Shown: positions 4,427-48,966 of the stretch, piece after piece
Position numbering within the stretch: position 1 is the stretch's first letter
How the letters are laid out: each line of letters starts with the position of its first letter
Assembly (NCBI RefSeq): GCF_945890115.1
Contig: NZ_CAMDCK010000009.1
Location: forward strand, 1 to 64,000
Length of the DNA stretch: 64,000 nt
Reading direction: 5' to 3'
DNA from: Sphingorhabdus sp. EL138
GTDB taxonomy: Bacteria > Pseudomonadota > Alphaproteobacteria > Sphingomonadales > Sphingomonadaceae
Position numbers and translations under genes: made by a program
The notes under the pieces: model-generated
What the model was told of the DNA's origin: nothing
Databases searched by the model: none
The model's input: only the letters and a program-made list of their open reading frames with translations

Positions 4427-6178
4427 TCAGCTCTTTGCCTTTTCCGCCGCGACCCAGTCCTTGATTTGCTGCTCAAGCACGTCGAGCGGCACGGACCCTT
4501 GCCCAAGCACGGCGTCATGGAACGCGGCCAGATCAAATTTCGGCCCGAGTTCCTTGGTCGCCATATCGCGCAATGCGCGGATTTTCAGTTCGCCCAATTT
4601 GTAAGCGAGCGCTTGACCCGGCCAACTGATATAGCGGTTCACCTCCGCCTCGATATTCGCGGCGGACAAAGCGCTGTTGTCGGTCATGAAGGCGATGGCC
4701 TGCTGTTTGCTCCAACCTTTGGCATGAATGCCGGTGTCGACCACCAAGCGGCATGCACGCCACATTTCATAGGACAGCCGCCCCATATCTTTGGCAGGGG
4801 TGTCATATAGCCCCATTTCGATACCAAGCCGTTCGGAATATAGCCCCCAGCCTTCGGTAAAAGCGGTGAACGACGCGCCATATTTGCGGAAATTGGACAA
4901 GGGCAGCTCCTGCTGCAACGCGATCTGATGATGATGCCCTGGCACCCCTTCATGCACCGACAGCGCCGGAATTTCCCAGAATGGGCGCTGGCTCAGTTTC
5001 GAGGTGTTGACAAAATAGGTGCCGGATATCCCAATTTCGGGCGACCCTGGATTATAATAAGCTGTGGTCGTACCTTCTGCAGTTTCCGCCGGAATTTCTC
5101 TTATACCATATGGCAGGCGGGGCAGACGTCCGAACAGGCTTGGCATTTTGCCATCGATGATCTTTGTCACCCGCGCGACCTTCTCCATCAGCTCCTCCGG
5201 CGTTTTGGCATAATATTGCGGGTCGGTACGCAGATGTTCAATGAACGCTTCGCGGCTGGGATAGCCTGCCTTTTGCGCGACCTCGACCATTTCGGCGCGA
5301 ATGCGGGATACTTCGCTGAGGCCAATCTGGTGGATTTGCTCTGCGGTCAGGTTGGTCGTGGTTTCTTCGCGGATGCGAAAGGCGTAATAAGCCGCGCCAT
5401 TCGGCTGCGCGGACACGCCGGGGGCCTTGGCACAAGCGGGCTTGTAGCTTGCGGTGTACCATGCCAACTGCTTGGCCAGCGCCGGATGAATGATGTTTCT
5501 GATCGTTGCCTCGGCATTAGCCGCCAGCGCCGCAAAGTCGCTTTCCGAAATGCCGGCGGGACGCTTTGCCGCATAAGGGCCGTAAAAACGCGACTGGCGA
5601 ATGTCGGATGTGATAAGTCCGCTGACCGTCCCTTCAAATCCCGTCAGTGTTTCGCAAGGCTGCGTAAATTTGCCCTTAATGGCGACATTGGCGACCGCGA
5701 TATTCTCGTCATTGACGCGGCTATATTGCGCGAGACGCGCATTATAGCTTTCAAAATCCGTCTTGGTCTTGAACGGCAAGTTGCGCGACATTCTGGCGAG
5801 TTGTTGGTGCCAGCTTGAATAAGTGGTGAAGTTGATAGCGCGCTGACCGAACTGATTGCCTTCGATGGTGGACATTAATGACCGCCTTAATATGCCCGCC
5901 TCCACCTTTGATGCTGCACGCAATGCATTTGCGGGAATGGCATCCAAACGGGCGAGGAACTGTGCGGCATCGGCGGCTCTGCGGTCCTGCGCCGCCAGCG
6001 TATACTCGCCCAGCTCTTGGGCATAAGCATTCACGCCCAGCGCGCTGGCGTAGACAGGCGCCTCTTTCAATGTCGTCGCCCAGACGTCCTCCACCAAAAT
6101 GGTGAGATCATCATTAGCATCGGCAAAAGCTGGCGCCGAAAGCGCAAATAAGGATCCGGCGATTAACAGGCTACGCAT
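4427..6178 (-). CDS. DUF885 family periplasmic protein, metallopeptidase-like
   Basis: This is a 583-residue DUF885 protein. The motif HEGVPGHHHQ, near residue 400, resembles the HExxH zinc site of metallopeptidases, and FTEGWGLYSE follows about 35 residues later and may supply another ligand. Physiological substrates are unknown; related proteins are usually annotated as putative periplasmic peptidases. The start at 6178 gives a clean signal peptide (MRSLLIAGSLFALSAPAFA); a longer frame to 6235 adds 19 residues ahead of it and is less likely. It stands alone, convergent with the secreted protein gene to its left. Confidence 0.88.
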   Translation of the reverse strand: MRSLLIAGSLFALSAPAFADANDDLTILVEDVWATTLKEAPVYASALGVNAYAQELGEYTLAAQDRRAADAAQFLARLDAIPANALRAASKVEAGILRRSLMSTIEGNQFGQRAINFTTYSSWHQQLARMSRNLPFKTKTDFESYNARLAQYSRVNDENIAVANVAIKGKFTQPCETLTGFEGTVSGLITSDIRQSRFYGPYAAKRPAGISESDFAALAANAEATIRNIIHPALAKQLAWYTASYKPACAKAPGVSAQPNGAAYYAFRIREETTTNLTAEQIHQIGLSEVSRIRAEMVEVAQKAGYPSREAFIEHLRTDPQYYAKTPEELMEKVARVTKIIDGKMPSLFGRLPRLPYGIREIPAETAEGTTTAYYNPGSPEIGISGTYFVNTSKLSQRPFWEIPALSVHEGVPGHHHQIALQQELPLSNFRKYGASFTAFTEGWGLYSERLGIEMGLYDTPAKDMGRLSYEMWRACRLVVDTGIHAKGWSKQQAIAFMTDNSALSAANIEAEVNRYISWPGQALAYKLGELKIRALRDMATKELGPKFDLAAFHDAVLGQGSVPLDVLEQQIKDWVAAEKAKS

Positions 6179-6320
6179 AAATAAAGCTTCTCCATCACAA
6201 CTTGAAGTGACGAATAAAGCAGGGAAAGCGGCCATTGGCTAGCGGCGATTCCCAATATATATGCGGCTTGGTGGCCTGTGTGCAGGCTGAACAACGATGC
6301 CCAGCCTGCCGCAGTTCTTT

Positions 6321-9300
6321 TTACTCGGCGGCTTCCAACGCCTCATGGTCGGACAGTGGCTGGCTCAGCCGCGTGAGCATTTCCTTTGGACAAATCTGCC
6401 AAAACTCGCCGCGCCTGCGGTCCCAATCTTCAATGATTGATTTCGACCAAGCGCTGTCAGTTGTCCGCGCATGTTCGGTGATCAGGGCCTTCAGCGCATC
6501 TTCCCAATAGCCACTGTCAAGGCGCTGCCATATGATGCTGTCTGGATTTGCCATTTGGGTGAAGTCGCGTTCGGTATCGAGCACGAACGCCATGCCGCCC
6601 GTCATGCCCGCACCAAAATTGCTACCGACCTTGCCTAAGATAACCGCCATGCCGCCGGTCATATATTCAAGGCCATTGGACCCGCAGCCTTCAACCACGA
6701 CATGTGCGCCGGAATTACGGACCGCAAAACGTTCCCCAGCTTGTCCTGCCGCGAACAAATGGCCGGATGTTGCGCCATAAAGCACGGTGTTGCCGATGAT
6801 GCTATTTTGCTGGCTAGTCAACGGGCTGCTGACTGTTGGACGTACGATGATCGTCCCGCCCGACAGTCCCTTGCCGACATAGTCATTGGCATCGCCAAAG
6901 ACTTCCAAGGTGATGCCTTGGCACAAAAATGCGCCAAGTGACTGTCCAGCGGAGCCCCGCAAACGGACATGGACATGCCCTTCGGCTAGGCCCTTCATGC
7001 CATATAGCCGCGTGATTTCAGAGCTCAGCCTTGTGCCCACCGCACGGTGCGTGTTGCGGACATTGTAGGTGAGCTGCATCTTCTCACGCCGTTCAAACAC
7101 GGGCCGCGCGTCATGGATCATTTGCGCATCAAGGCTATCGGGCACTTCATTGCGGAAGGTCGGGATGCTGAAACGACGCGCGCTGTCAGGCGCATCGACC
7201 TTGGCCAAAATCGGGTTGAGGTCGAGATCATCAAGATGCTCGGCCCCGCGGCTGACCTGCCGAAGTAGCTCTGTGCGGCCAATGACATCATTAAGGCTGC
7301 GATAGCCAAGCTTCGCCAATATCTCGCGCACTTCTTCGGCAATGAAGGTCATCAGGTTAATGACCTTTTCCGGTGTGCCGGTAAATTTCTTGCGCAAGGC
7401 TTCGTCCTGAACGCACACGCCCACGGGGCAGGTGTTCGAATGGCATTGCCGCACCATGATACAGCCCATGGCGACAAGGCTGAGCGTGCCAATGCCAAAT
7501 TCTTCGGCGCCCAATATAGCAGCGATCACAATGTCGCGTCCGGTTTTCAGACCGCCATCGGTACGCAGTTTTACACGATGACGAAGGCCGTTGAGCGTGA
7601 GCACTTGGTTCGCCTCTGACAGGCCCATTTCCCATGGCGTGCCGGCATATTTGATGCTGGTTTGCGGACTTGCGCCCGTGCCGCCGACATTGCCGGAGAT
7701 CAGGATGACATCGGCATGCGCCTTGGCCACGCCTGCTGCAATGGTGCCGATGCCCGCCGCACTGACAAGCTTCACACAGACCCGCGCGCGCGGGTTGATT
7801 TGCTTGAGGTCGTAAATCAACTGCGCCAGATCTTCGATTGAGTAAATGTCGTGATGCGGCGGCGGTGAAATCAACGTCACGCCTGGCGTCGAATGCCGCA
7901 GACGCGCGATCATTTCAGTCACCTTGAAACCGGGCAATTGCCCACCTTCGCCGGGCTTTGCGCCCTGTGCGACCTTGATTTCAATTTCCTCGCATGCGCC
8001 CAGATATTCGGCGGTCACGCCAAAGCGGCCACTGGCGACCTGCTTGATGACGCTATTGGCATTGTCGCCATTTTCATAGGGCTTGAAACGCTTGCTGTCC
8101 TCGCCGCCTTCCCCCGACACGGCCTTTGCGCCGATGCGGTTCATGGCAATCGCCAATGTTTCATGTGCCTCTGGCGACAGCGCGCCAAGCGACATTCCGG
8201 GCGTGACAAAACGCTTTCGGATTTCGGTGATGGCCTCAACCTCGTCAATCGCGACCGGCTCTTTGGCGAAATTGAATTCGAGCAAATCGCGCAAGTAAAT
8301 GGGCGGCAATTCCTTCACGCCTTGCGCAAATTGGGTGTAGGTTGAATAGCTATCATTCGCGACTGAGCTTTGCAGCAAATGCATCAGGCCAGCGGAATAC
8401 GCATGTTCTTCGCCGCCGTCGCGTTGCTTGTAAAATCCGCCGACGGGCAGGCGGGCCACGGCAGCATCGAACGCGTCATCATGACGGTCGCGGGCGTTGA
8501 CATATAATGAGTGATATCCTTCGCCCGAAATTTTGTTCGGCATGCCGGGGAAGAAGTCGTTGACCAATGCGCGTGACAGGCCAACCGCCTCAAAATTATA
8601 ACCGCCACGGTAGCTGGAGATAACGGCAATGCCCATTTTGGACATGATCTTCAGCAGACCTTCGTTAATCGCGGTGCGGTAATTTTCGACCGCTTGCGTC
8701 AAGCTATAGCCATCAAGTAAGCCGCGTCCATGCCGGTCGGCAATCACCGCTTCGGCAAGATAGGCGTTAACTGTGGTCGCGCCGACGCCGATGAGCACGG
8801 CAAAATAATGCGTGTCCAAGCATTCGGCGGAACGGACATTGATCGACGAATAACTGCGCAGGCCATTGCGCACCAAATGCGTGTGCACAGCGGCGGCGGC
8901 GAGGATCATCGCGATACCGACGCGATCCGCGCTGATATTTTCATCGGTCAGGAACAGTTCGGATTTGCCCATGCGTACTGCGGCTACCGCTTCTTCGCGA
9001 ATACGCGTTATCGCGGCCCGCAGGCCCTCTTGCCCGGTCGAGATATCATAAGTGCAATCAATGTCGGCACCCAATGGCCCGAACGCGGCCTTCAGCCGGC
9101 GCCAATCGCGCGCCGTTAGGACTGGGCTGTCCAGCACCAAGACATCCGCATTCTGGCTCTTTTCCTCCAGGATATTGGCAAGGTTGGAAAAGCGCGTTTT
9201 CAGGCTCATCACATGCCGTTCGCGCAAGCTGTCGATGGGCGGGTTGGTGACTTGGCTGAAATTCTGGCGGAAGAATTGGCTGATCAGGCGCGGCTTATCG

Positions 9301-42491: not shown

Positions 42492-42962
42492 ATGACTCGG
42501 TTTTTCTCGCTGACGCTGATGCTGTCGGCTGCCATTTTTTGGGGCGTCTGGACGCTATCCGGCACAGCCCCGGTTGGCGGCGTCGCTGCTTTGGCCGCAA
42601 GCGCCCCCGACACCGAAACCGCCGCATTTGGCCTCTGCAAAAGCGGCGGGGGCACGAACTGCGTCGTGGATGGGGATACGATCTGGTATCGCGGTAGCAA
42701 GATTCGCATCGCCGATATCGATACCCCCGAAACGCATCAACCCCGCTGCGCGGCGGAGGCGGCGCTTGGTGCCGCAGCAACACGGCGGCTGCATGAACTT
42801 GTCAATGCCGGTCCGTTCACCCTGCAAAGCATCAACCGCGACGAAGATCGCTATGGCCGCAAATTGCGCATCCTGACGCGCGGTGGGGAAAGCCTGGGCG
42901 ATATATTGGTCGAAGAAGGGCTTGCGCGTTATTATGAAGGCGGCCGACGCAGCTGGTGCTGA
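42492..42962 (+). CDS. Thermonuclease family protein
   Basis: The 156-residue protein is exported (signal-like hydrophobic segment at about 4-22) and has a staphylococcal-nuclease-type OB fold. VVDGDTIWY, IRIADIDTPET, RDEDRYGRKLRI and LVEEGLARYY are the key blocks, with the catalytic Asp, Arg and Glu of the family in plausible positions. It would cut DNA or RNA in the periplasm or outside the cell. ATG at 42492 (MTRFFSLTLML) is chosen for the signal sequence; the longer frame to 42435 lacks one. Confidence 0.88.
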   Translation: MTRFFSLTLMLSAAIFWGVWTLSGTAPVGGVAALAASAPDTETAAFGLCKSGGGTNCVVDGDTIWYRGSKIRIADIDTPETHQPRCAAEAALGAAATRRLHELVNAGPFTLQSINRDEDRYGRKLRILTRGGESLGDILVEEGLARYYEGGRRSWC

Positions 42963-42997
42963 ACAGCTTTATCGCCGCCCCAGACGGGCGCGGTTCG

Positions 42998-43279
42998 TCA
43001 TAAACAGACCGCCGCCAGCACAGCGGCACAGACGTGCAGTATCGCGATCTTGTGCAGGTGGCTGGAAAAGGGCTGCTTGCGCGTCTTGTGCCGGAATACC
43101 GCGCGACCAGCATATGCGCCGATGGTTCCCTCAAAAAACGCCCATGTCAGCAACGCCCCTTCCGACACACGGTCGGACCCCGCCCGAGCGCGGAGTTTAT
43201 CGACGCCGAACAGCAGGAACGTCCACAGGTTGATCAGCGCAAACAGGCCAAGCGTATTGGGGAGGGTGAGGAGGGGCAT
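42998..43279 (-). CDS. DUF1294 small membrane protein
   Basis: The 93-residue protein has membrane segments at both ends and the DUF1294 core: NLWTFLLFGVDKLRARAG (family form DKxxA), then GALLTWAFFEGTIGAYAGRAVFRHKTRKQPF. The function is unknown. It is convergent with the thermonuclease and is the last conserved chromosomal gene before the accessory island that starts near 43300. Confidence 0.88.
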   Translation of the reverse strand: MPLLTLPNTLGLFALINLWTFLLFGVDKLRARAGSDRVSEGALLTWAFFEGTIGAYAGRAVFRHKTRKQPFSSHLHKIAILHVCAAVLAAVCL

Positions 43280-43420
43280 GCGTGATATGCTGGTGGGTTA
43301 GTGTGTATTGATAGCTGGAATAAGGCGCACACGCCAGAGCGGCACCAATGAGCGCATTGCGGTAATTCCTATTAAATCGAAATTAGTAAACTTTTTCTAG
43401 AATCATAAATTCAGGATTTG

Positions 43421-43525
43421 TTAAGCAACAATCGTTTCATCAGACTGTTTCTCTAGTTGTTCAAGGGGCGATCCAGACACCAGTTCGATTTGATACGGCT
43501 CTGTAAAAATTTCCTCAAAAGACAA
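43421..43525 (-). pseudogene. 3' part of the disrupted HEPN-like gene
   Basis: These 35 codons are the true C-terminus of the gene whose front lies at 46177-47504. After removal of 43518-46176, the reading frame runs straight across the junction into LSFEEIFTEPYQIELVSG and on to a TAA at 43421. As the DNA stands, an open frame from an ATG at 43585 (inside the transposon) also reads this segment, giving a 54-residue chimera that probably has no meaning. Bases 43518-43525 are the target-site duplication. Confidence 0.88.
43518..43525. repeat. Target-site duplication, left copy
   Basis: AAAGACAA abuts the left terminal inverted repeat and is repeated exactly at 46177-46184. An 8-base duplication is the length expected for IS1595-family insertion. 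Confidence 0.95.
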
Positions 43526-43549
43526 CCCGTTTATCCCCTTGACGCATGT
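43526..43549 (+). repeat. Left terminal inverted repeat of the transposon
   Basis: This 24-base sequence starts CCCGTTTATCCCC and ends GCATGT. It is the exact reverse complement of 46153-46176. Flanking bases outside the 24 do not match. Confidence 0.96.
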
Positions 43550-43599
43550 TGATGGTGCAAACTCACTAATGCCCGAGTTGAGCATAGCCAATACAACTC

Positions 43600-44103
43600 T
43601 TAATTTGGCGGGTTTGGGGATTCTGGAGGCAAGTGGGCCGTGTATTCACTCATGTTAGTTATTCTTACTTTTAACGAACCCAACCTGACTTCGTCATCAC
43701 CTAAGTATGCCCTCACCGTAATCATACAGGGTTCGGTGATAATAAGGGGCGACATTCGCACAATATGACTGAGTTCAATAAACACCATGCTGTGTTCGTC
43801 GATTGGTGCTGGCAGTAAGTCTCTCTGACAGGCTGGTACATCGTAATCAAAAGAAGAAAGCACTTTAGCCTCTCCATCCGAACCGAACATGGATACAACG
43901 ACCTTTAAGCTATATGAATCGTCGTTTGGTTTGTTTCGAAAAGAGACAACAGCATACAACTGTGGAAGCGATAATGGAGCTTCACCATAAGCTGTAAGTT
44001 CGCCACCATAAACACCAACTATAGTAACTTTCCCACCGATTTCTTTCCTTACGTCATCGCAAAAAATGACGTAGCCCCCTGGAACGCTGGGCTGAAGGAT
44101 CAT
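43600..44103 (-). CDS. Passenger protein of unknown function, possibly DUF6941
   Basis: The 167-residue protein starts GGYVIFCDDVRKEIGGKVTIVGVYGG, which recalls a family of unknown function (possibly DUF6941) with a conserved FCDDIR-type start. The rest is beta-rich with no catalytic signature that I can see. Its ATG overlaps the stop of the HTH gene (ATGA), so it is the third gene of a coupled passenger operon. It ends 51 bases inside the left inverted repeat of the transposon. Confidence 0.7.
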   Translation of the reverse strand: MILQPSVPGGYVIFCDDVRKEIGGKVTIVGVYGGELTAYGEAPLSLPQLYAVVSFRNKPNDDSYSLKVVVSMFGSDGEAKVLSSFDYDVPACQRDLLPAPIDEHSMVFIELSHIVRMSPLIITEPCMITVRAYLGDDEVRLGSLKVRITNMSEYTAHLPPESPNPPN

Positions 44104-44507
44104 GATGCGAAAACCCTAGGGCCGTTAAACGTGCTTGCTGTGTTGATCCGCGGCGTTTCGTCGATTGTGCTCGGGCAAGAAGTGGTGAGCGCTTGCGTTT
44201 GTTCGCCGGACGGGGTGTAAATTTTGCCGTCCGTTCGGTCATAAACAGAAACTCGAATTTCAAGATCAAGCGCGTTGGCAATGTCCGAAACTGTATTTGC
44301 GGTCCAGTTTGGAGAGTTTGCAAACCAGCGTGAGACTACCGATTTATCAACTTTCAGTGCGTCCGAAAGTTGCTTCATCTTAAACGCGGATTTTCTCTTT
44401 TTCCTCGCTTGGATTACCGCCCAGAACATGCTGACTAGTGATGACCGATAAAAAAACCGATCATATTCAGCGAGCATTTCAGTGTCTTTATTTTCAGTCA
44501 TAGTCAT
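44100..44507 (-). CDS. HTH (Xre-like) DNA-binding passenger protein
   Basis: The 135-residue protein contains a helix-turn-helix of the Cro/C1 kind at about residues 45-85: LSDALKVDKSVVSRWFA, then ANTVSDIANALDLEI. It is basic before the HTH. The start is ATG 44507 (or 44501), which makes the gene overlap the previous one by up to 14 bases. It may repress its own operon, and could be the antidote half of a toxin-antitoxin-like pair with the upstream gene; that is inference from gene order. Confidence 0.75.
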   Translation of the reverse strand: MTMTENKDTEMLAEYDRFFYRSSLVSMFWAVIQARKKRKSAFKMKQLSDALKVDKSVVSRWFANSPNWTANTVSDIANALDLEIRVSVYDRTDGKIYTPSGEQTQALTTSCPSTIDETPRINTASTFNGPRVFAS

Positions 44508-45015
44508 TGTCCAAATCAATGTGCTGCGGTCCAAAATAATCCTCAAAATTATTGGACCGCATAGGCGGAATACCTCCGGTAACTTCGTCCCATGTGTCAA
44601 TCACTCTTGCCGCAACAGCAGCGTATGAAACTTTTGCAATCTCCTCGCGGGAAGCAATAACAGTGCCTACAAAAATATTGCGGTCCACAAATCGCCCTAA
44701 AAGCCTTCCTTGTCCCAGTTTCGGCTTCCTAAAAGCCATGATCCATACCTCATCGGTATCAACCATCCGCTTGAAATCTGCCCTCTTATCCATTGCCCCA
44801 GATACAGTAACCATATGTCCGCTTCTAAAACGGCCAAAAGTGAGTTCGGCAGTAGTTCGCGGGAAATACGGTTCTTTGGTGTCCAAAAACGCTCTAACCT
44901 CTTCTGTTACGAATACCCGTCTAACCACGTTTGGCGTTGCGCGCAGGCCGAAGCGCTCGACAAGCGTGGTTCGCTTCAATCGTTCAATAGATAGGGATGT
45001 TGCGTTAAAAGTCAA
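44494..45015 (-). CDS. Passenger protein of unknown function, toxin candidate
   Basis: The product has up to 173 residues and I do not recognise it with confidence. The middle (FGRFRSGHMVTVSGAMDKRADFKRM, then DEVWIMAFRKPKLGQGRLLGRFVDRNIFVG) resembles small proteins on phages and mobile elements that look RelE/HigB-like. It precedes and overlaps an Xre-type HTH gene, an order typical of HigBA-like modules. The frame opens with TTG at 45015; a second TTG 12 codons later is as likely, since neither has a clear ribosome site. Confidence 0.6.
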   Translation of the reverse strand: MTFNATSLSIERLKRTTLVERFGLRATPNVVRRVFVTEEVRAFLDTKEPYFPRTTAELTFGRFRSGHMVTVSGAMDKRADFKRMVDTDEVWIMAFRKPKLGQGRLLGRFVDRNIFVGTVIASREEIAKVSYAAVAARVIDTWDEVTGGIPPMRSNNFEDYFGPQHIDLDNDYD

Positions 45016-45095
45016 CTAACGGATGCCTCGATTCGTCGCAGAGTGACACAATTACCTTGCTTTTGAAATCGTAAGCGACGTGCTAATAATCGATT

Positions 45096-45290
45096 ATGGA
45101 AACACCAATTACATTATCAGAGGCTCTGGCGTCGGGCCAACTAGAGGCCTTTATTAGCCAAGCAGAAGCGGAAGGCATCGGCCCTGCTGATCGCGCTCAA
45201 TTCGAGAAAATGGTGAGGCGCGTCACAGCGCCCCAACAAGAAGATCAAACATCCCATTTACCCGCTGGCGATTGTTTGCCCGAAACGTGA
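45096..45290 (+). CDS. Small passenger ORF (64 residues)
   Basis: The peptide starts METPITLSEALASGQLEAFI and continues with an acidic helical segment (AEAEGIGPADRAQFEKMV). I recall similar 60-70-residue proteins in sphingomonads but know no function. Its last 68 bases run antisense through the end of the transposase gene. Either the overlap is natural within this element or the tail is read-through. It has no strong ribosome site. It sits divergent from the toxin candidate, whose promoter must share the 80-base gap. Confidence 0.45.
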   Translation: METPITLSEALASGQLEAFISQAEAEGIGPADRAQFEKMVRRVTAPQQEDQTSHLPAGDCLPET

Positions 45291-46128
45291 ACTCGCTCAG
45301 ATAGCGTTCCATGTGCTTGGCGCTAACTTGAACGTGAGTTGACCGGATAGACGCCTTAAACAGTCTCCAGAAGCCTTCCACAGTGTTTACATGGAACGTC
45401 TGGTTAGTCCGGTAGTCATAATAGGCATATTCTTTCTGGCCGTGCTTTACGGTGCCGTGCTTGTAACCATCGCCAGTGAGTAAATTGTAGCTGTAAAGTT
45501 CATCGGTCGAGACAAACGAACCGGCTTCCACGTTTTGCAGAACAACATCGCGCAGCGTGTCTTTCTTCACGTTGGGAATGACCGTTGCCTTCATCTGGCC
45601 GTCACGTGAAGCCAGACCCATAACGATAGTCTTGTTTGGAGCGCCACGACCGCGCTTGCCGACCGATGTGCGACCGCCGACATAGGCTTCGTCCAGTTCG
45701 ACGTGACCGGAAAGCAGGGCGTCAAACGATTGAGCCTTGGCGGTGAGATCGCGGATTTGCTGTCCGATGCGATAGGCAGTCTTATAGGTGACGCCAAGCT
45801 GGCGTTGCAGTTCCTTACCCGATACGCCGTGGCGCGTCGTGCAGAACAGATACATAGCATAGAACCAGCTAACCAGTGGGGTTCGCGTATCATGCAGAAT
45901 TGTACCAGCGGTCGGGTTTACGTGGTGACCGCAAGCGGCGCAGACATAGGTGCGGCGCTTGGCTAGTTTATGGTGGCTGCTTTCCTTGCCGCATGACGTG
46001 CAGACAAAGCGCGTTCCACCAAAGCGAACGGCCATGATGTGATCGAGACAGGCATCATCAGTCGGGAAGCGGGCGAAAAATTCGCGGACCGAAAATTCAG
46101 GCGATGCAGAGGGCGATTTCTTTTCCAT
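45223..46128 (-). CDS. IS1595-family transposase
   Basis: The protein of about 301 residues has an N-terminal zinc ribbon (CTSCGK...CAACGHH) and a helical segment, then an ISXO2-type DDE domain. The acidic residues are in HVELDEAYVGG, VSTDELYSYN and NTVEGFWRLFK. It ends RANNRQRVNGMFDLLVG, typical of the family. ATG at 46128 gives MEKKSPSASPEF; an in-frame GTG at 46134 is also possible. The gene is intact, so the element may be active. Confidence 0.96.
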   Translation of the reverse strand: MEKKSPSASPEFSVREFFARFPTDDACLDHIMAVRFGGTRFVCTSCGKESSHHKLAKRRTYVCAACGHHVNPTAGTILHDTRTPLVSWFYAMYLFCTTRHGVSGKELQRQLGVTYKTAYRIGQQIRDLTAKAQSFDALLSGHVELDEAYVGGRTSVGKRGRGAPNKTIVMGLASRDGQMKATVIPNVKKDTLRDVVLQNVEAGSFVSTDELYSYNLLTGDGYKHGTVKHGQKEYAYYDYRTNQTFHVNTVEGFWRLFKASIRSTHVQVSAKHMERYLSEFTFRANNRQRVNGMFDLLVGAL

Positions 46129-46152
46129 GCCCACTTGTTAGCATCATGTTCT

Positions 46153-46176
46153 ACATGCGTCAAGGGGATAAACGGG
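46153..46176 (-). repeat. Right terminal inverted repeat of the transposon
   Basis: Exact reverse complement of 43526-43549 over 24 bases. It lies 25 bases before the transposase ATG, so the transposase promoter must be in or next to it, or read-through from the disrupted gene drives it. Confidence 0.96.
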
Positions 46177-46184
46177 AAAGACAA
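46177..46184. repeat. Target-site duplication, right copy
   Basis: AAAGACAA, identical to 43518-43525, directly abutting the right terminal inverted repeat. Confidence 0.95.
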
Positions 46185-47504
46185 TGCAAAATCTTTAGCA
46201 TCTTTGACGTTGTCAAACACTGGCCAAGTCCGAAGTGCGCTTTTAGAAATGGATTCGGATGCTACGGCTTGAGGCATCAGTTTACATACTTCCTCTACAT
46301 TGCCTTGTACTGCCGCAACACAGATTCTAAATTGGTCAGAGGAAGCTGTCCAATCTAGCTCCGCAAGAATTTCCTCAGCTAATTCCCTTTTTCCTGCACG
46401 AGCATGAGAGTTTGCTAAATTTATATACATCATACGGCGGGTAACTTCATCAGCATCGCAATTTTGTTTACGTAAACAAAAATCCAACAAGTTTCCGGCT
46501 AACTTATATCTCCGTTTTACTATCAATTCGTAGCAAGCGCGGTTCATCTTTGTAAATGCTTTTGGGTCTTTCACTCCTAGCTTTTGCCATGCCATAAATG
46601 CAAGGGTGACTCCAAATTCAGCTAAGTGATCAACCGCCTTGTGTAGGTATTTTGGATCAAGCTTAAATTTTGATCCTATTTCTATCCCATCAGTAGGATA
46701 TTTATATTGTCTGCATTTATCTAAATATCTTTGCGTCACATTTCCAGATGCGTGCGCAATTTGATTTCGACGCTCAAATATTTCGAGATAATTGGGAAGC
46801 CTTTCGTAGCTTCCCAATATTTTCGTTTCGACTAATTTCTCGATATAATCTATCTGATCATAATGCGAGGTACGAAGAAGCTGCGCAACTTCATTCTCAA
46901 TTGCTTCATCAAGTAACTTTGAAACATTACCTATTTTAAAAATTTCTCTGTAGGTAATTGTCTTTTCACTTAACTGCACTCTTTCAGGTTTTAATTTGAG
47001 TAGTTCAGATATAAAATCACCTATTAAAGAATCATAGCTTGCGACTAGGCTAAGTAGAAGACTCGACGGAAGCGCAGATAAACCGGCAGTTATCTCATTC
47101 ATTTTTTCAAAGTGTTTAAATACAATTTCCGCACCGTCCTCCGTTAGCCCATAAATCTCTGACGTTTCATCTTTTTCCATGAGGGTGCCATGCTTTTTAG
47201 TTGGAGGGAGCACATGCCCCTCTAGCGCTCCTGATGACAGACTGCCTCCCACAATGGTAGTTATCGCTATCAAGTGATGAAATTTAAGTAGCTCTTCTTC
47301 AAATCTATCAATAAATTTGCTACAAAGTTGGCCTATTTCTGTTAATTCAAATTCATTTGTTGACGAATTCGATTCATCAACATCTTCTTCATTGTAATAT
47401 AATGGCCCATTAATGCTTTCTAGCGTAGAGGCTACGCGAAAAGAATTAAACGATTGATCTTTTTTTTCTTTGCTAAATCTGACAAATAAATAATACTCGT
47501 TCAT
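46177..47504 (-). pseudogene. 5' part of a HEPN-like gene disrupted by the transposon
   Basis: The AT-rich gene encodes about 442 residues before the insertion. Residues 246-251 are RNQIAH, the R-x4-H motif of HEPN ribonuclease domains, within a helical region typical of RiboL-PSP/MAE-type HEPN proteins. The segment from about 320 to 420 is helical and TPR-like. Joined to 43421-43517, the intact protein would be 474 residues. HEPN proteins often act in phage defence or toxin-antitoxin systems, so that role is a fair guess. As it stands, the frame reads on into the transposase in the wrong frame for 50-odd residues. Confidence 0.85.
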
Positions 47505-47572
47505 TCTCTAGAAACTCCGGAAATTTTTGCGTGCATTCTTAATCCGTCGCAAATCAAGCTGGCCGGAACAAA

Positions 47573-47672
47573 TACCGTCACTTTCGACCACGGGCTCATG
47601 GCCTATGACTTTCTTTTGCGGTTGTCGAAGTTGATCCATCGTTAGCCCCCAATGGCTGCGTGCGCTTGTTAC
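47573..47672 (-). pseudogene. Decayed copy of the nrdB 3' end
   Basis: These bases align with nrdB at about 47952-48052. GGTTGTCGAAG is identical, and the flanking CCGTCA (47575 versus 47954) lies 46 versus 47 bases away. Matching stretches continue through CCCCAAT and GCGTG. The reading frame is broken by small indels and substitutions. It has the same orientation as the live gene about 380 bases away. Confidence 0.7.
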
Positions 47673-47830
47673 ACATTTAACATATTGTCAAAAAATATGA
47701 AGTCAAACCCGATGTGGCGCTTGTCCACAACGTACCAGTGACTTGACTGCGGCGCGTCTTAAGCCGCTGCCGCACACCCAAATACACGGCGGTGACTGTC
47801 AGGCTCCCCACATCCGGATAGAATGCGCAC

Positions 47831-47866
47831 AAAAAACTGCCGCGCCTCTTTGCAGAAGCGCGGCAG
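47831..47866 (-). terminator. Rho-independent terminator of nrdB
   Basis: On the minus strand CTGCCGCGC (47858-47866 in reverse) pairs with GCGCGGCAG (47837-47845 in reverse) and is followed by six T residues. It lies about 50 bases after the nrdB stop. Confidence 0.88.
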
Positions 47867-47913
47867 GGTGAATGTCTAACGCGATAGCGTATAAATCGGA
47901 TTATTGAGAAGGC

Positions 47914-48966
47914 TTACTCTGCAGCAACCCCAGCCGCTTCAAACATGTCCATGCCGTCATTTTCGGCGATGATGACTTCGGCGACGTCTTTCTTCTTACG
48001 GTTGTCGAAGCTGTTCCATACTTGGCCCCAATCGCCGCGTGTTGACGCCTTGCTATATTCGGTGGCGCGGGTTTCGAAGAAGTTGGCGTGCTCGACACCG
48101 TTCAACAATGGCGCGAGCCATGGCAGCGGGTGGTCTTCGACCATGTAGATGGGTTGAAAACCAAGCTGACCCAGACGCCAATCGGCGATGTAGCGGATGT
48201 AGCGTTTGATTTCCTTGGCGGTCATGCCGGGGACTGGGCCCATTTCGAACGCGAGGTCGATGAAATTATCTTCCAGACGGACGACCTTTTGGCAGCAATC
48301 GATAATGTCTTCCCGCACCGATTTGGTGAGGCAGCCACGTTCGGCGCAGAATGCGTGGAACAGCTTGGTAATGCCTTCGCAGTGTAAGGACTCGTCGCGG
48401 ACGGACCAGGATACGATTTGCCCCATGCCCTTCATCTTGTTGAAGCGCGGGAAGTTCATCAGCATCGCGAAGGAGGCGAATAATTGCAGCCCTTCTGTAA
48501 AGCCGCCGAACATGGCCAATGTGCGCGCAATGTCTTCGTCACTGTCGACGCCGAATTGGTGGATATAATCGACCTTCGCCGCCATTTCTTCATATTCGAG
48601 GAATGCCGAATATTCGGACTCGGGCATGCCGATGGTGTCGAGCAAATGGCTGTAGGCCGCGACATGGACGGTTTCCATGTTGGAAAAGGCAGTCAGCATC
48701 ATCTTGACTTCAGTCGGCTTGAACACGCGGCCGTAATTTTCGTGGTAGCAATTCTGCACCTCGATATCGGCTTGCGTGAAGAAACGGAAGATTTGCGTCA
48801 GCAGATTGCGTTCATGGTCCGACAATTTCTGCGCCCAATCGCGGCAATCTTCGCCCAAGGGCACTTCTTCAGGCAACCAATGGATCTGCTGCTGACGTTT
48901 CCAGAAGTCATAGGCCCATGGATATTCAAAGGGCTTGTAGCTGTTGCGGGCTTCTAACAATGACAT
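47914..48966 (-). CDS. nrdB: Ribonucleoside-diphosphate reductase beta subunit
   Basis: NrdB houses the di-iron tyrosyl radical that starts ribonucleotide reduction in NrdA. The 350 residues show the ligand-rich helices (TQADIEVQNCYHENYG, FSNMETVHVAAYSHLLD, ESLHCEGITKLFHAF) and the C-terminal tail that docks into the alpha subunit. The N-terminus MSLLEARNSYKPFEYPWAYDFW is family-like. It follows nrdA after 62 bases that contain a CCCCTTGCGGGGG hairpin. Confidence 0.96.
   Translation of the reverse strand: MSLLEARNSYKPFEYPWAYDFWKRQQQIHWLPEEVPLGEDCRDWAQKLSDHERNLLTQIFRFFTQADIEVQNCYHENYGRVFKPTEVKMMLTAFSNMETVHVAAYSHLLDTIGMPESEYSAFLEYEEMAAKVDYIHQFGVDSDEDIARTLAMFGGFTEGLQLFASFAMLMNFPRFNKMKGMGQIVSWSVRDESLHCEGITKLFHAFCAERGCLTKSVREDIIDCCQKVVRLEDNFIDLAFEMGPVPGMTAKEIKRYIRYIADWRLGQLGFQPIYMVEDHPLPWLAPLLNGVEHANFFETRATEYSKASTRGDWGQVWNSFDNRKKKDVAEVIIAENDGMDMFEAAGVAAE

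What the first reader, a model, noticed from the sequence alone, without database searches (positions are those of the whole stretch)
43518..46184. IS1595-family transposon carrying passenger genes, with exact ends
A 24-bp perfect terminal inverted repeat (43526-43549 and 46153-46176) and an 8-bp target duplication AAAGACAA (43518-43525 and 46177-46184) define a 2,651-bp element. An IS1595 copy normally holds only its transposase; this one adds a three-gene coupled operon and a small ORF. The perfect ends suggest recent movement. Elements of this design move cargo without a plasmid or integrase and are easy to miss because only the transposase is annotated.
Basis: partly seen in the sequence, partly recalled or inferred. 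Interest (0 to 1): 0.85.

Follow-up and report, generated by a model that had tools for sequence, protein, structure and literature searches.

The report
Jumping gene carrying three-gene toxin-like module
This is a complete 2.65-kb bacterial transposon whose cargo is a three-gene set that looks like a toxin, its antidote and an unexplained third partner; related sets ride on other small transposons, on plasmids and beside phage genes, while the transposon type itself is a known kind.

Summary
Removing the element rejoins a 474-codon low-GC gene. Its premise fails: in this alphaproteobacterial clade cargo is the rule. Of 52 IS1595 loci examined, both ends could be placed in 41; all 41 have at least 800 bp outside the transposase match, and 31 have an exact 8-bp duplication. 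These are "transporter IS" (tIS), a known kind. One relative has two base-identical copies, cargo included, at different targets. The small convergent ORF is conserved beside related transposases, so not cargo. The unexpected part is the cargo. The order gene 1, Xre-type HTH, DUF6941 recurs in 15 of 17 assessable DUF6941 loci: three inside IS1595 elements, one beside an IS1-type transposase with tentative ends, others on plasmids, beside phage genes or in chromosomes. In three loci a ParE/Gp49-type toxin or likely relative replaces gene 1. Best reading: a three-gene type II toxin–antitoxin-like module with DUF6941 as third component. Gene 1 matches no known toxin family and fold searches were inconclusive, so toxicity is inferred. 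Element: new member of a known kind; cargo: probably a new variant.

The parts
43518..43525 (.). target-site duplication AAAGACAA, left copy
46177..46184 (.). target-site duplication AAAGACAA, right copy
43526..43549 (+). terminal inverted repeat, cargo end (24/24 with the other end; 27 bp at 96%)
   Evidence: the same end sequence, 22-24 of 24, in the nearest relatives L016-L018
46153..46176 (-). terminal inverted repeat, transposase end
45223..46134 (-). IS1595-family transposase, 303 aa, full length, GTG start
   Evidence: PF12762 2.2e-40, PF12760 1.8e-10; NF033547 1.6e-54
45096..45290 (+). small convergent ORF, 64 aa, overlapping the transposase 3' end; probable core accessory gene of the transposase subgroup
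   Evidence: tblastn in relatives with different cargo, e.g. L043-L047 and L091-L097; not found in most of the more distant elements; no family match of weight
44494..45015 (-). cargo gene 1, 173 aa, TTG start, putative toxin; no known family
   Evidence: no Pfam/NCBIfam/PADLOC/PHROG match of weight; homologues at the same place of the operon in L112, L113, L128 and others
44100..44507 (-). cargo gene 2, 135 aa, Xre/HTH_3 protein, putative antitoxin and autoregulator
   Evidence: PF01381 4e-5; aligned with L112, L113, L115
43600..44103 (-). cargo gene 3, 167 aa, DUF6941 protein
   Evidence: PF22091 4.7e-7, 30.6 bits against a cut-off of 27
46177..47504 (-). 5' part of the interrupted target gene (low GC, weak RiboL-PSP-HEPN match)
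   Evidence: PF18735 2.8e-5, 24.5 bits, below its cut-off of 28.4; GC 0.38 against 0.55 for the window
43421..43525 (-). 3' end of the interrupted target gene; with the element and one duplication left out the frame runs 474 codons

Best explanation
A complete, single-copy transporter IS (tIS) of the IS1595 family. Shown: its transposase has the IS1595 DDE domain, it is bounded by 24-bp inverted ends, and insertion left an 8-bp duplication inside an accessory gene. Inferred: the transposase acts on the two ends and moves everything between them. The cargo is one operon of three overlapping genes. Inferred: gene 1 is a growth-inhibiting toxin, gene 2 (Xre-type HTH) its antitoxin and operon repressor, and gene 3 (DUF6941) a third component that tunes the pair, either as a chaperone-like helper of the antitoxin or as a sensor of invading DNA or phage. 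The module would pay its way by addiction or by defence, which helps a small element stay in the population. The gene set moves between carriers independently of the transposase.
For: Ends, duplication and transposase. Same design as a rule: both ends placed in 41 of 52 IS1595 loci (window included); 41 of 41 have 0.8-3.7 kb outside the transposase match; 31 of 41 have an 8/8 duplication and one 7/8. Unit mobility in a relative: G707 has two copies, 2,434 of 2,434 bases identical, cargo included, with different duplications and flanks. Cargo: the order gene 1, HTH, DUF6941 is found in 15 of 17 assessable loci. Three lie inside IS1595 elements: the window, L112 Hyphomonas (3,263 bp, duplication 8/8), L113 Parvularcula (a distant transposase, 2,772 bp, 7/8); their end pairs beat 100 of 100 shuffles. 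A fourth, L122, is followed 6 nt later by an IS1 transposase (PF03400 3.6e-7). Gene 1 is one family over most loci (hhalign 95.2% and 94.6% to the window group; 100% between the L126/L115 and Bosea/Rhizobium groups). In L125 the first gene is a ParE toxin (PF05016 7.5e-7), in L127 a weak Gp49 match (0.003, below its cut-off), in L132 a protein aligning to the L125 ParE at 81.9%. Overlaps of 14 and 4 nt in the window and in L113. Cargo does not follow the transposase: against the window, L112 has transposase 57% and gene 1 28%, L113 has 34% and 37%, while L043 with an 84% transposase carries other cargo.
Against: Gene 1 has no match of weight to any toxin family, none in PDB sequences, and no significant fold match: best E 0.76 in PDB, 0.41 in BFVD; entries that are RelE/HigB-type toxins (YafQ, a pneumococcal TA toxin, HP0894 by recall, HigB2) appear only at E 2.6-4.8. 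hhalign between gene 1 and the ParE/Gp49 group is null (0.8% or less), and two direct links inside the gene 1 family are weak (22.9%, 19.2%). The L132 gene has no Pfam match. DUF6941 also stands alone: L121 and phage MR13 (L133), 2 of 17. The 15 loci are not all independent: L061 and L115, and L130 and L131, are close pairs. No toxicity data. The element is single-copy, so its own activity is unproven. L122's ends (16 of 22) were matched by 2 of 100 shuffles.
Confidence: 0.6

Rival explanations
1. The element is a tIS, but the cargo is a phage-type regulatory module or small-molecule switch, not a toxin-antitoxin set: gene 1 and DUF6941 would be regulators or enzymes under an Xre repressor, kept because they were captured from prophages.
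For: The set lies beside the phage portal gene in Sphingopyxis (L061) and beside a terminase-like gene (by recall) in viral contig L115; DUF6941 stands without the other two in the immunity region of Pseudomonas phage MR13; no toxin family match for gene 1.
Against: ParE/Gp49-type genes replace gene 1 in L125, L127 and probably L132; toxin-antitoxin pairs occur in prophages too; toxin-first order with overlapping HTH gene is that of higBA.
Confidence: 0.25
2. The cargo genes are ordinary host genes trapped by chance between two ends; nothing about them is selected as cargo.
For: Cargo differs from element to element and most of it matches no family.
Against: Several cargo sets recur between elements with diverged transposases: the window/L112/L113 (and L122), L043/L047, L044/L094, L098/L108, L050/L099, L008/L046, L056/L057. 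Gene 1 was seen in no other of 296 genomes of the order.
Confidence: 0.1
3. The element is an immobile relic with well-preserved ends.
For: Single copy in the genome; nearest transposases about 84% identical.
Against: Full-length transposase, perfect ends, exact duplication, target frame still open across 474 codons; a relative has two identical copies.
Confidence: 0.1

Closest known systems
Transporter IS (tIS) of the IS1595 family (Siguier, Gagnevin and Chandler 2009; not held, known through citing passages)
   Same: IS1595 transposase, inverted ends, 8-bp duplications, passenger genes unrelated to transposition
   Different: Nothing in the architecture. Here the cargo is co-directional with the transposase, whereas the longest cargo ORF runs opposite in 35 of 40 elements. 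This cargo was not recognised in the listings (no paper; 20 of 31 titles and abstract starts seen).
Toxin-antitoxin pairs in Tn3-family transposons (PMC7157771, passages read)
   Same: Type II toxin-antitoxin genes carried by transposons, with several independent acquisitions; Gp49 and ParE types among them
   Different: Those sit next to the resolution site inside a Tn3 transposition module; here an IS1595 element, in which I saw no resolvase gene, carries a three-gene set with an unclassified first gene and DUF6941
Toxin-antitoxin-chaperone (TAC) modules, HigB-HigA-SecB-like (PMC5105189, passages read)
   Same: Three-gene operon, HTH-type second gene with a C-terminal tail after the HTH (HTH at 35-84 of 135 aa), small third gene
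   Different: DUF6941 shows no sequence link to SecB; gene 1 is not a recognised HigB; chaperone dependence is untested
IS1-type transposase neighbour (L122 here)
   Same: A relative of the same three genes stands directly before an IS1-type transposase, between tentative ends with an 8-bp duplication
   Different: Another transposase family; ends pair at only 16 of 22 and 2 of 100 shuffles do as well

Membership tests
IS1595 family | IS1595/ISXO2-like DDE transposase with zinc ribbon | tested here: met
   PF12762 2.2e-40, PF12760 1.8e-10; NF033547 1.6e-54
IS1595 family | inverted ends and 8-bp target duplication | tested here: met
   24/24 and 8/8; related ends in relatives
Transporter IS (tIS) | passenger genes not needed for transposition between the same ends | tested here: met
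   three ORFs, 43600-45015, none with a transposition family; relatives carry other cargo
Transporter IS (tIS) | element and cargo move as a unit | tested here: inconclusive
   one copy here; seen in relative G707, two identical copies at different targets
Type II toxin-antitoxin | toxin of a known family or fold | tested here: inconclusive
   no family match of weight; AlphaFold model pTM 0.74, mean pLDDT 68, but no fold match at E <= 0.001
Type II toxin-antitoxin | adjacent, overlapping DNA-binding antitoxin gene | tested here: met
   HTH_3 gene overlapping gene 1 by 14 nt; conserved order in 15 of 17 loci. That it is an antitoxin is inferred.
Type II toxin-antitoxin | toxicity neutralised by the antitoxin | not testable with these tools
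   needs expression
Toxin-antitoxin-chaperone | SecB-like third gene | tested here: not met
   PF22091 only; PDB profile search gave nothing below E 0.55; the fold of DUF6941 was not predicted
Toxin-antitoxin-chaperone | C-terminal antitoxin extension that imposes chaperone need | tested here: inconclusive
   a tail of about 51 aa follows the HTH; its role is unknown

The most novel reading that the evidence does not exclude
DUF6941 is the third component of a mobile family of three-gene toxin-antitoxin-like or defence modules. The module accepts different toxins (an unclassified family, or ParE/Gp49 types) and is spread by small transporter IS of the IS1595 family, probably also of the IS1 family, as well as by prophages and plasmids. 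In Alphaproteobacteria, IS1595 elements would be a general, largely unannotated vehicle for such defence-like cassettes. (Odds lowered from 0.40 to 0.37 after one search showed the IS1 ends to be tentative.)
Probability: 0.37. Interest if true: 0.68.

Novelty: new variant of a known kind. Interest (0 to 1): 0.5.

Why it matters
If the reading holds, a domain of unknown function (DUF6941) gains a concrete, testable role, and the smallest autonomous transposons, usually annotated by their transposase alone, become recurrent carriers of defence-like modules. The survey also gives a practical rule: in this IS1595 clade, look between the ends, because 41 of 41 elements with both ends placed held 0.8 kb or more outside the transposase match.

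Tried and rejected
Chance origin of the window's ends was rejected (0 of 100 shuffles). An earlier chimeric control gave 0 of 60 above 15 of 22 with an exact duplication (54 with none of 14 or more), but it is not the whole story: L109 has an 18-of-22 pair with an 8/8 repeat whose letters do not resemble IS1595 ends (0 of 100 shuffles reach it). I left L109 unassigned, so odd pairs do occur and ends supported by score alone deserve caution. L122's pair (16 of 22) is matched by 2 of 100 shuffles. The small ORF as cargo was rejected. RNA families: none in 42500-48000. Promoter and terminator scans were not above shuffled expectation, so no separate cargo promoter is claimed. Fold of gene 1: a single-sequence model was useless (mean pLDDT 35); with five sequences pTM is 0.74, but Foldseek found nothing significant in PDB or BFVD, so the RelE-like fold I expected is not shown. 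Gene 1 relatives: none by direct search in genome contigs or viral contigs; one by direct search of plasmids (Rhizobium pMK-2); the rest came by way of the DUF6941 neighbour. The PF22091 genome search (5 of 289 genomes) missed the window's own protein, so its count is a lower bound. Eleven IS1595 loci were left without assigned ends (L006, L010, L012, L013, L048, L096, L100, L103, L104, L109, L110); L013 pairs ends around a 705-bp truncated copy. Nine of the 42 elements have no good duplication as called, so their ends rest on the inverted pair alone. DUF6941-only loci (L121, L133) are counted against; the contig-edge locus L123 is set aside. Plasmid hits H5, H6, H8 and phage hits H12, H13 were listed but not opened.
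Full report
Observation. The element is exactly as described. Sequence, repeat search and string comparison give 24/24 identical inverted ends, an 8/8 duplication AAAGACAA, and 2,651 bp between the duplications. No shuffle of 100 came near (at most 13 of 22 with an exact repeat, against 22). The transposase is full length and belongs to IS1595 by Pfam and NCBIfam. The genome held for the window (2.31 Mb, 37 contigs) has this one full copy and a distant IS1595-clade element on another contig: 1,880 bp, 8/8 duplication TTGTGCTT, other cargo (L056).

Target. Leaving out the element and one duplication rejoins a frame of 474 codons. The interrupted gene is low in GC (0.38 for its long part against 0.55 for the window), matches RiboL-PSP-HEPN only below the family cut-off, and had no match in the other 44 of 45 genomes searched in the genus, 34 of the 45 being at least 90% complete and at most 5% contaminated. 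It looks like an accessory gene, so no empty site could be looked up in relatives.

What the element is. I collected transposase relatives from 296 genomes of the order (22 genomes at E <= 1e-60, own included), 385 of the class (25 genomes, own included) and viral contigs (9 loci), and fetched larger regions for most of them. Searches examined 52 relatives with a transposase (51 IS1595 and the IS1-type L122). Both ends could be placed in 41 of these; with the window that makes 42 elements, 41 of them IS1595. Lengths run from 1,646 to 4,557 bp. Every one has at least 800 bp outside the transposase match. Thirty-two of 42 have an 8/8 duplication, one 7/8, nine fewer matches as called; among the 41 IS1595 elements 31 are 8/8. 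One, L105, has no cargo ORF of 80 codons or more. The 11 loci without placed ends cannot be judged. Genome G707 has two copies that agree in 2,434 of 2,434 bases, cargo included, with different duplications and different flanks: direct evidence, in a relative, that such a unit moves whole. The class is known: IS copies with passenger genes are called transporter IS, with the 2009 paper on the IS1595 family as source (PMC3129680 passages; the 2009 paper itself is not held).

Core gene, not cargo. The 64-aa ORF 45096-45290(+) meets the transposase tail to tail. tblastn finds it in the same place in the nearest relatives (L006-L009, L043-L048) and in farther ones (L091-L097), whatever cargo they carry, but not in most of the more distant elements. 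Its function is unknown.

Cargo. Gene 1 has no family. Gene 2 is HTH_3 (4e-5) and gene 3 is DUF6941 (4.7e-7, above its cut-off). Starting from DUF6941 I opened 18 distinct loci, the window included (with regions). One, L123, begins at a contig edge. Of the other 17, 15 have the order gene 1, HTH, DUF6941: the window, L061 (the same record as L111 and L114, Sphingopyxis), L112, L113, L115, L122, L124, L125, L126, L127, L128, L129, L130, L131, L132. Two lack it (L121, L133). The 15 are not all independent: L061 and L115, and L130 and L131, are close pairs. Overlaps are 14 and 4 nt in the window and in L113; in other loci the genes overlap or nearly abut (up to 46 nt apart in L132). Gene 1 forms one family across the window group, L122/L124, L126/L115/L111 and the Bosea/Rhizobium plasmids by chained hhalign links (95.2%, 94.6%, 100%), although two direct links are weak (window group to Bosea/Rhizobium 22.9%, L122/L124 to L126/L115 19.2%) and links to the ParE/Gp49 group are null. 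In L125 the first gene is a ParE toxin (7.5e-7), in L127 a weak Gp49 match, in L132 a protein with no Pfam match that aligns to the L125 ParE at 81.9%. This replacement, together with gene order and overlaps, is the main ground for reading the set as toxin-antitoxin-like.

Carriers. Three of the 15 sets lie between the ends of an IS1595 element: the window; L112 (Hyphomonas, 3,263 bp, duplication 8/8); and L113 (Parvularcula, a distant transposase, 2,772 bp, 7/8). Their end pairs were reached by 0 of 100 shuffles each. In L122 the set stands 6 nt before an IS1-type transposase (PF03400 3.6e-7); the best ends there give 3,654 bp with an 8/8 duplication but pair at only 16 of 22, which 2 of 100 shuffles match, so that carrier is tentative. 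In L124 the set lies just outside a 4,557-bp IS1595 element that itself carries a Panacea-type antitoxin gene (PF13274 4e-11). No IS1595- or IS1-like transposase was found in the regions of the other ten sets that I scanned: L125-L127 and L128-L132; L061 has none, and in L115 none was seen in the ORF list. Transposase and cargo do not descend together. Against the window, L112 has 57% identity in the transposase but 28% in gene 1, and L113 has 34% and 37%. L043 and L045, with 84% and 80% transposases, carry other cargo. So a related set entered IS elements more than once, or was exchanged between them.

Other cargo. Recurrent modules also include a two-gene set with a Cas2-like protein (L043 PF09827 2.2e-6; its L047 relative has no Pfam match but is 43% identical), a two-gene set in L044 and L094, and single genes shared by L098/L108, L050/L099, L008/L046 and L056/L057. 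I pooled 54 cargo ORFs: 53 of the 84 listed plus one, leaving out the DUF6941 sets, the second G707 copy and most short ORFs. Pfam at E <= 0.01 gave 18 families, among them Panacea, Cas2-like, N6 methylase with a specificity domain (both in L102), and trypsin-like domains in three members. PADLOC gave 71 families, 25 shown, led by candidate defence families PDC-S42, S45 and M35A and by methylases. These are counts of families, not of elements, and PDC entries are themselves only candidates.

Mechanism. Shown: ends, duplication, transposase, operon, recurrence, independence of cargo and transposase. From general knowledge of DDE transposases: the protein recognises both ends and inserts the unit with a staggered cut that gives 8 bp. 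Inferred: gene 1 as toxin, gene 2 as antitoxin and repressor, DUF6941 as third component. The fold model of gene 1 (pTM 0.74, mean pLDDT 68) found no significant match in PDB (best E 0.76) or BFVD (best E 0.41). RelE/HigB-type entries among the weak PDB hits (E 2.6-4.8, in the 50 of 93 rows shown) are noted without weight. DUF6941 itself was not modelled.

Literature. DUF6941 is in no paper of the held library. The search IS1595 with toxin-antitoxin found 31 papers; I saw 20 titles and abstract starts, none about such cargo. Passenger genes with insertion sequence, anti-phage and transposon gave two papers, seen as a listing only. Toxin-antitoxin pairs are known cargo of Tn3-family transposons (PMC7157771, passages), and three-gene toxin-antitoxin-chaperone modules are known (PMC5105189, passages; PMC11980606, passages). 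Most subscription journals are missing from the library and no IS reference database was searched, so absence here is weak evidence.

Verdict. The element is a new member of a known kind. The cargo is probably a new three-gene variant of toxin-antitoxin-like modules; its recurrence is well supported, its function is not tested.

Noticed in passing
45096-45290 (+): Small ORF conserved as a protein in nearer IS1595 relatives with unrelated cargo, convergent with and overlapping the transposase end; a likely core accessory gene of the subgroup.
   Followed up: partly
L094 and L095 (G707): Two base-identical 2,434-bp IS1595 elements with cargo at different targets in one genome, duplications TTTCTCGA and TAGAGTTA.
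   Followed up: yes
L056:4890-6769 (another contig of the window's genome): Second IS1595-clade element of the same genome, 1,880 bp, duplication TTGTGCTT, two-ORF cargo running opposite to the transposase.
   Followed up: partly
L122:3618-7271: IS1-type transposase directly after a relative of the same three-gene set, with a further ORF, between tentative ends (16 of 22, exact 8-bp duplication; 2 of 100 shuffles as good).
   Followed up: partly
L124:563-5119 and 5349-6712: A 4,557-bp IS1595 element with a Panacea-type antitoxin gene, and just outside it the DUF6941 three-gene set with a direct repeat of about 30 bp on either side (near 5170 and 6972).
   Followed up: partly
L102:1724-4087: A 787-aa fused N6 methylase plus specificity-domain protein as cargo of a 3.5-kb IS1595 element.
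   Followed up: partly
L043:6563-7617 and L047:2926-4044: A recurrent two-gene cargo set with a Cas2-like small protein (VapD-like by recall) in two IS1595 elements.
   Followed up: partly
L109:4309-7692: An 18-of-22 inverted pair with an exact 8-bp repeat around an IS1595-like transposase, but with letters unlike IS1595 ends; left unassigned.
   Followed up: no
46177-47504: The interrupted target gene is AT-rich (GC 0.38 in a window of 0.55) with a weak HEPN match and no relative in 44 other genomes of the genus.
   Followed up: partly
L128:5996-6910: On the Rhizobium plasmid the three-gene set is followed by a HEPN plus nucleotidyltransferase gene; the window element sits in a HEPN-like gene. 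Possibly coincidence.
   Followed up: no
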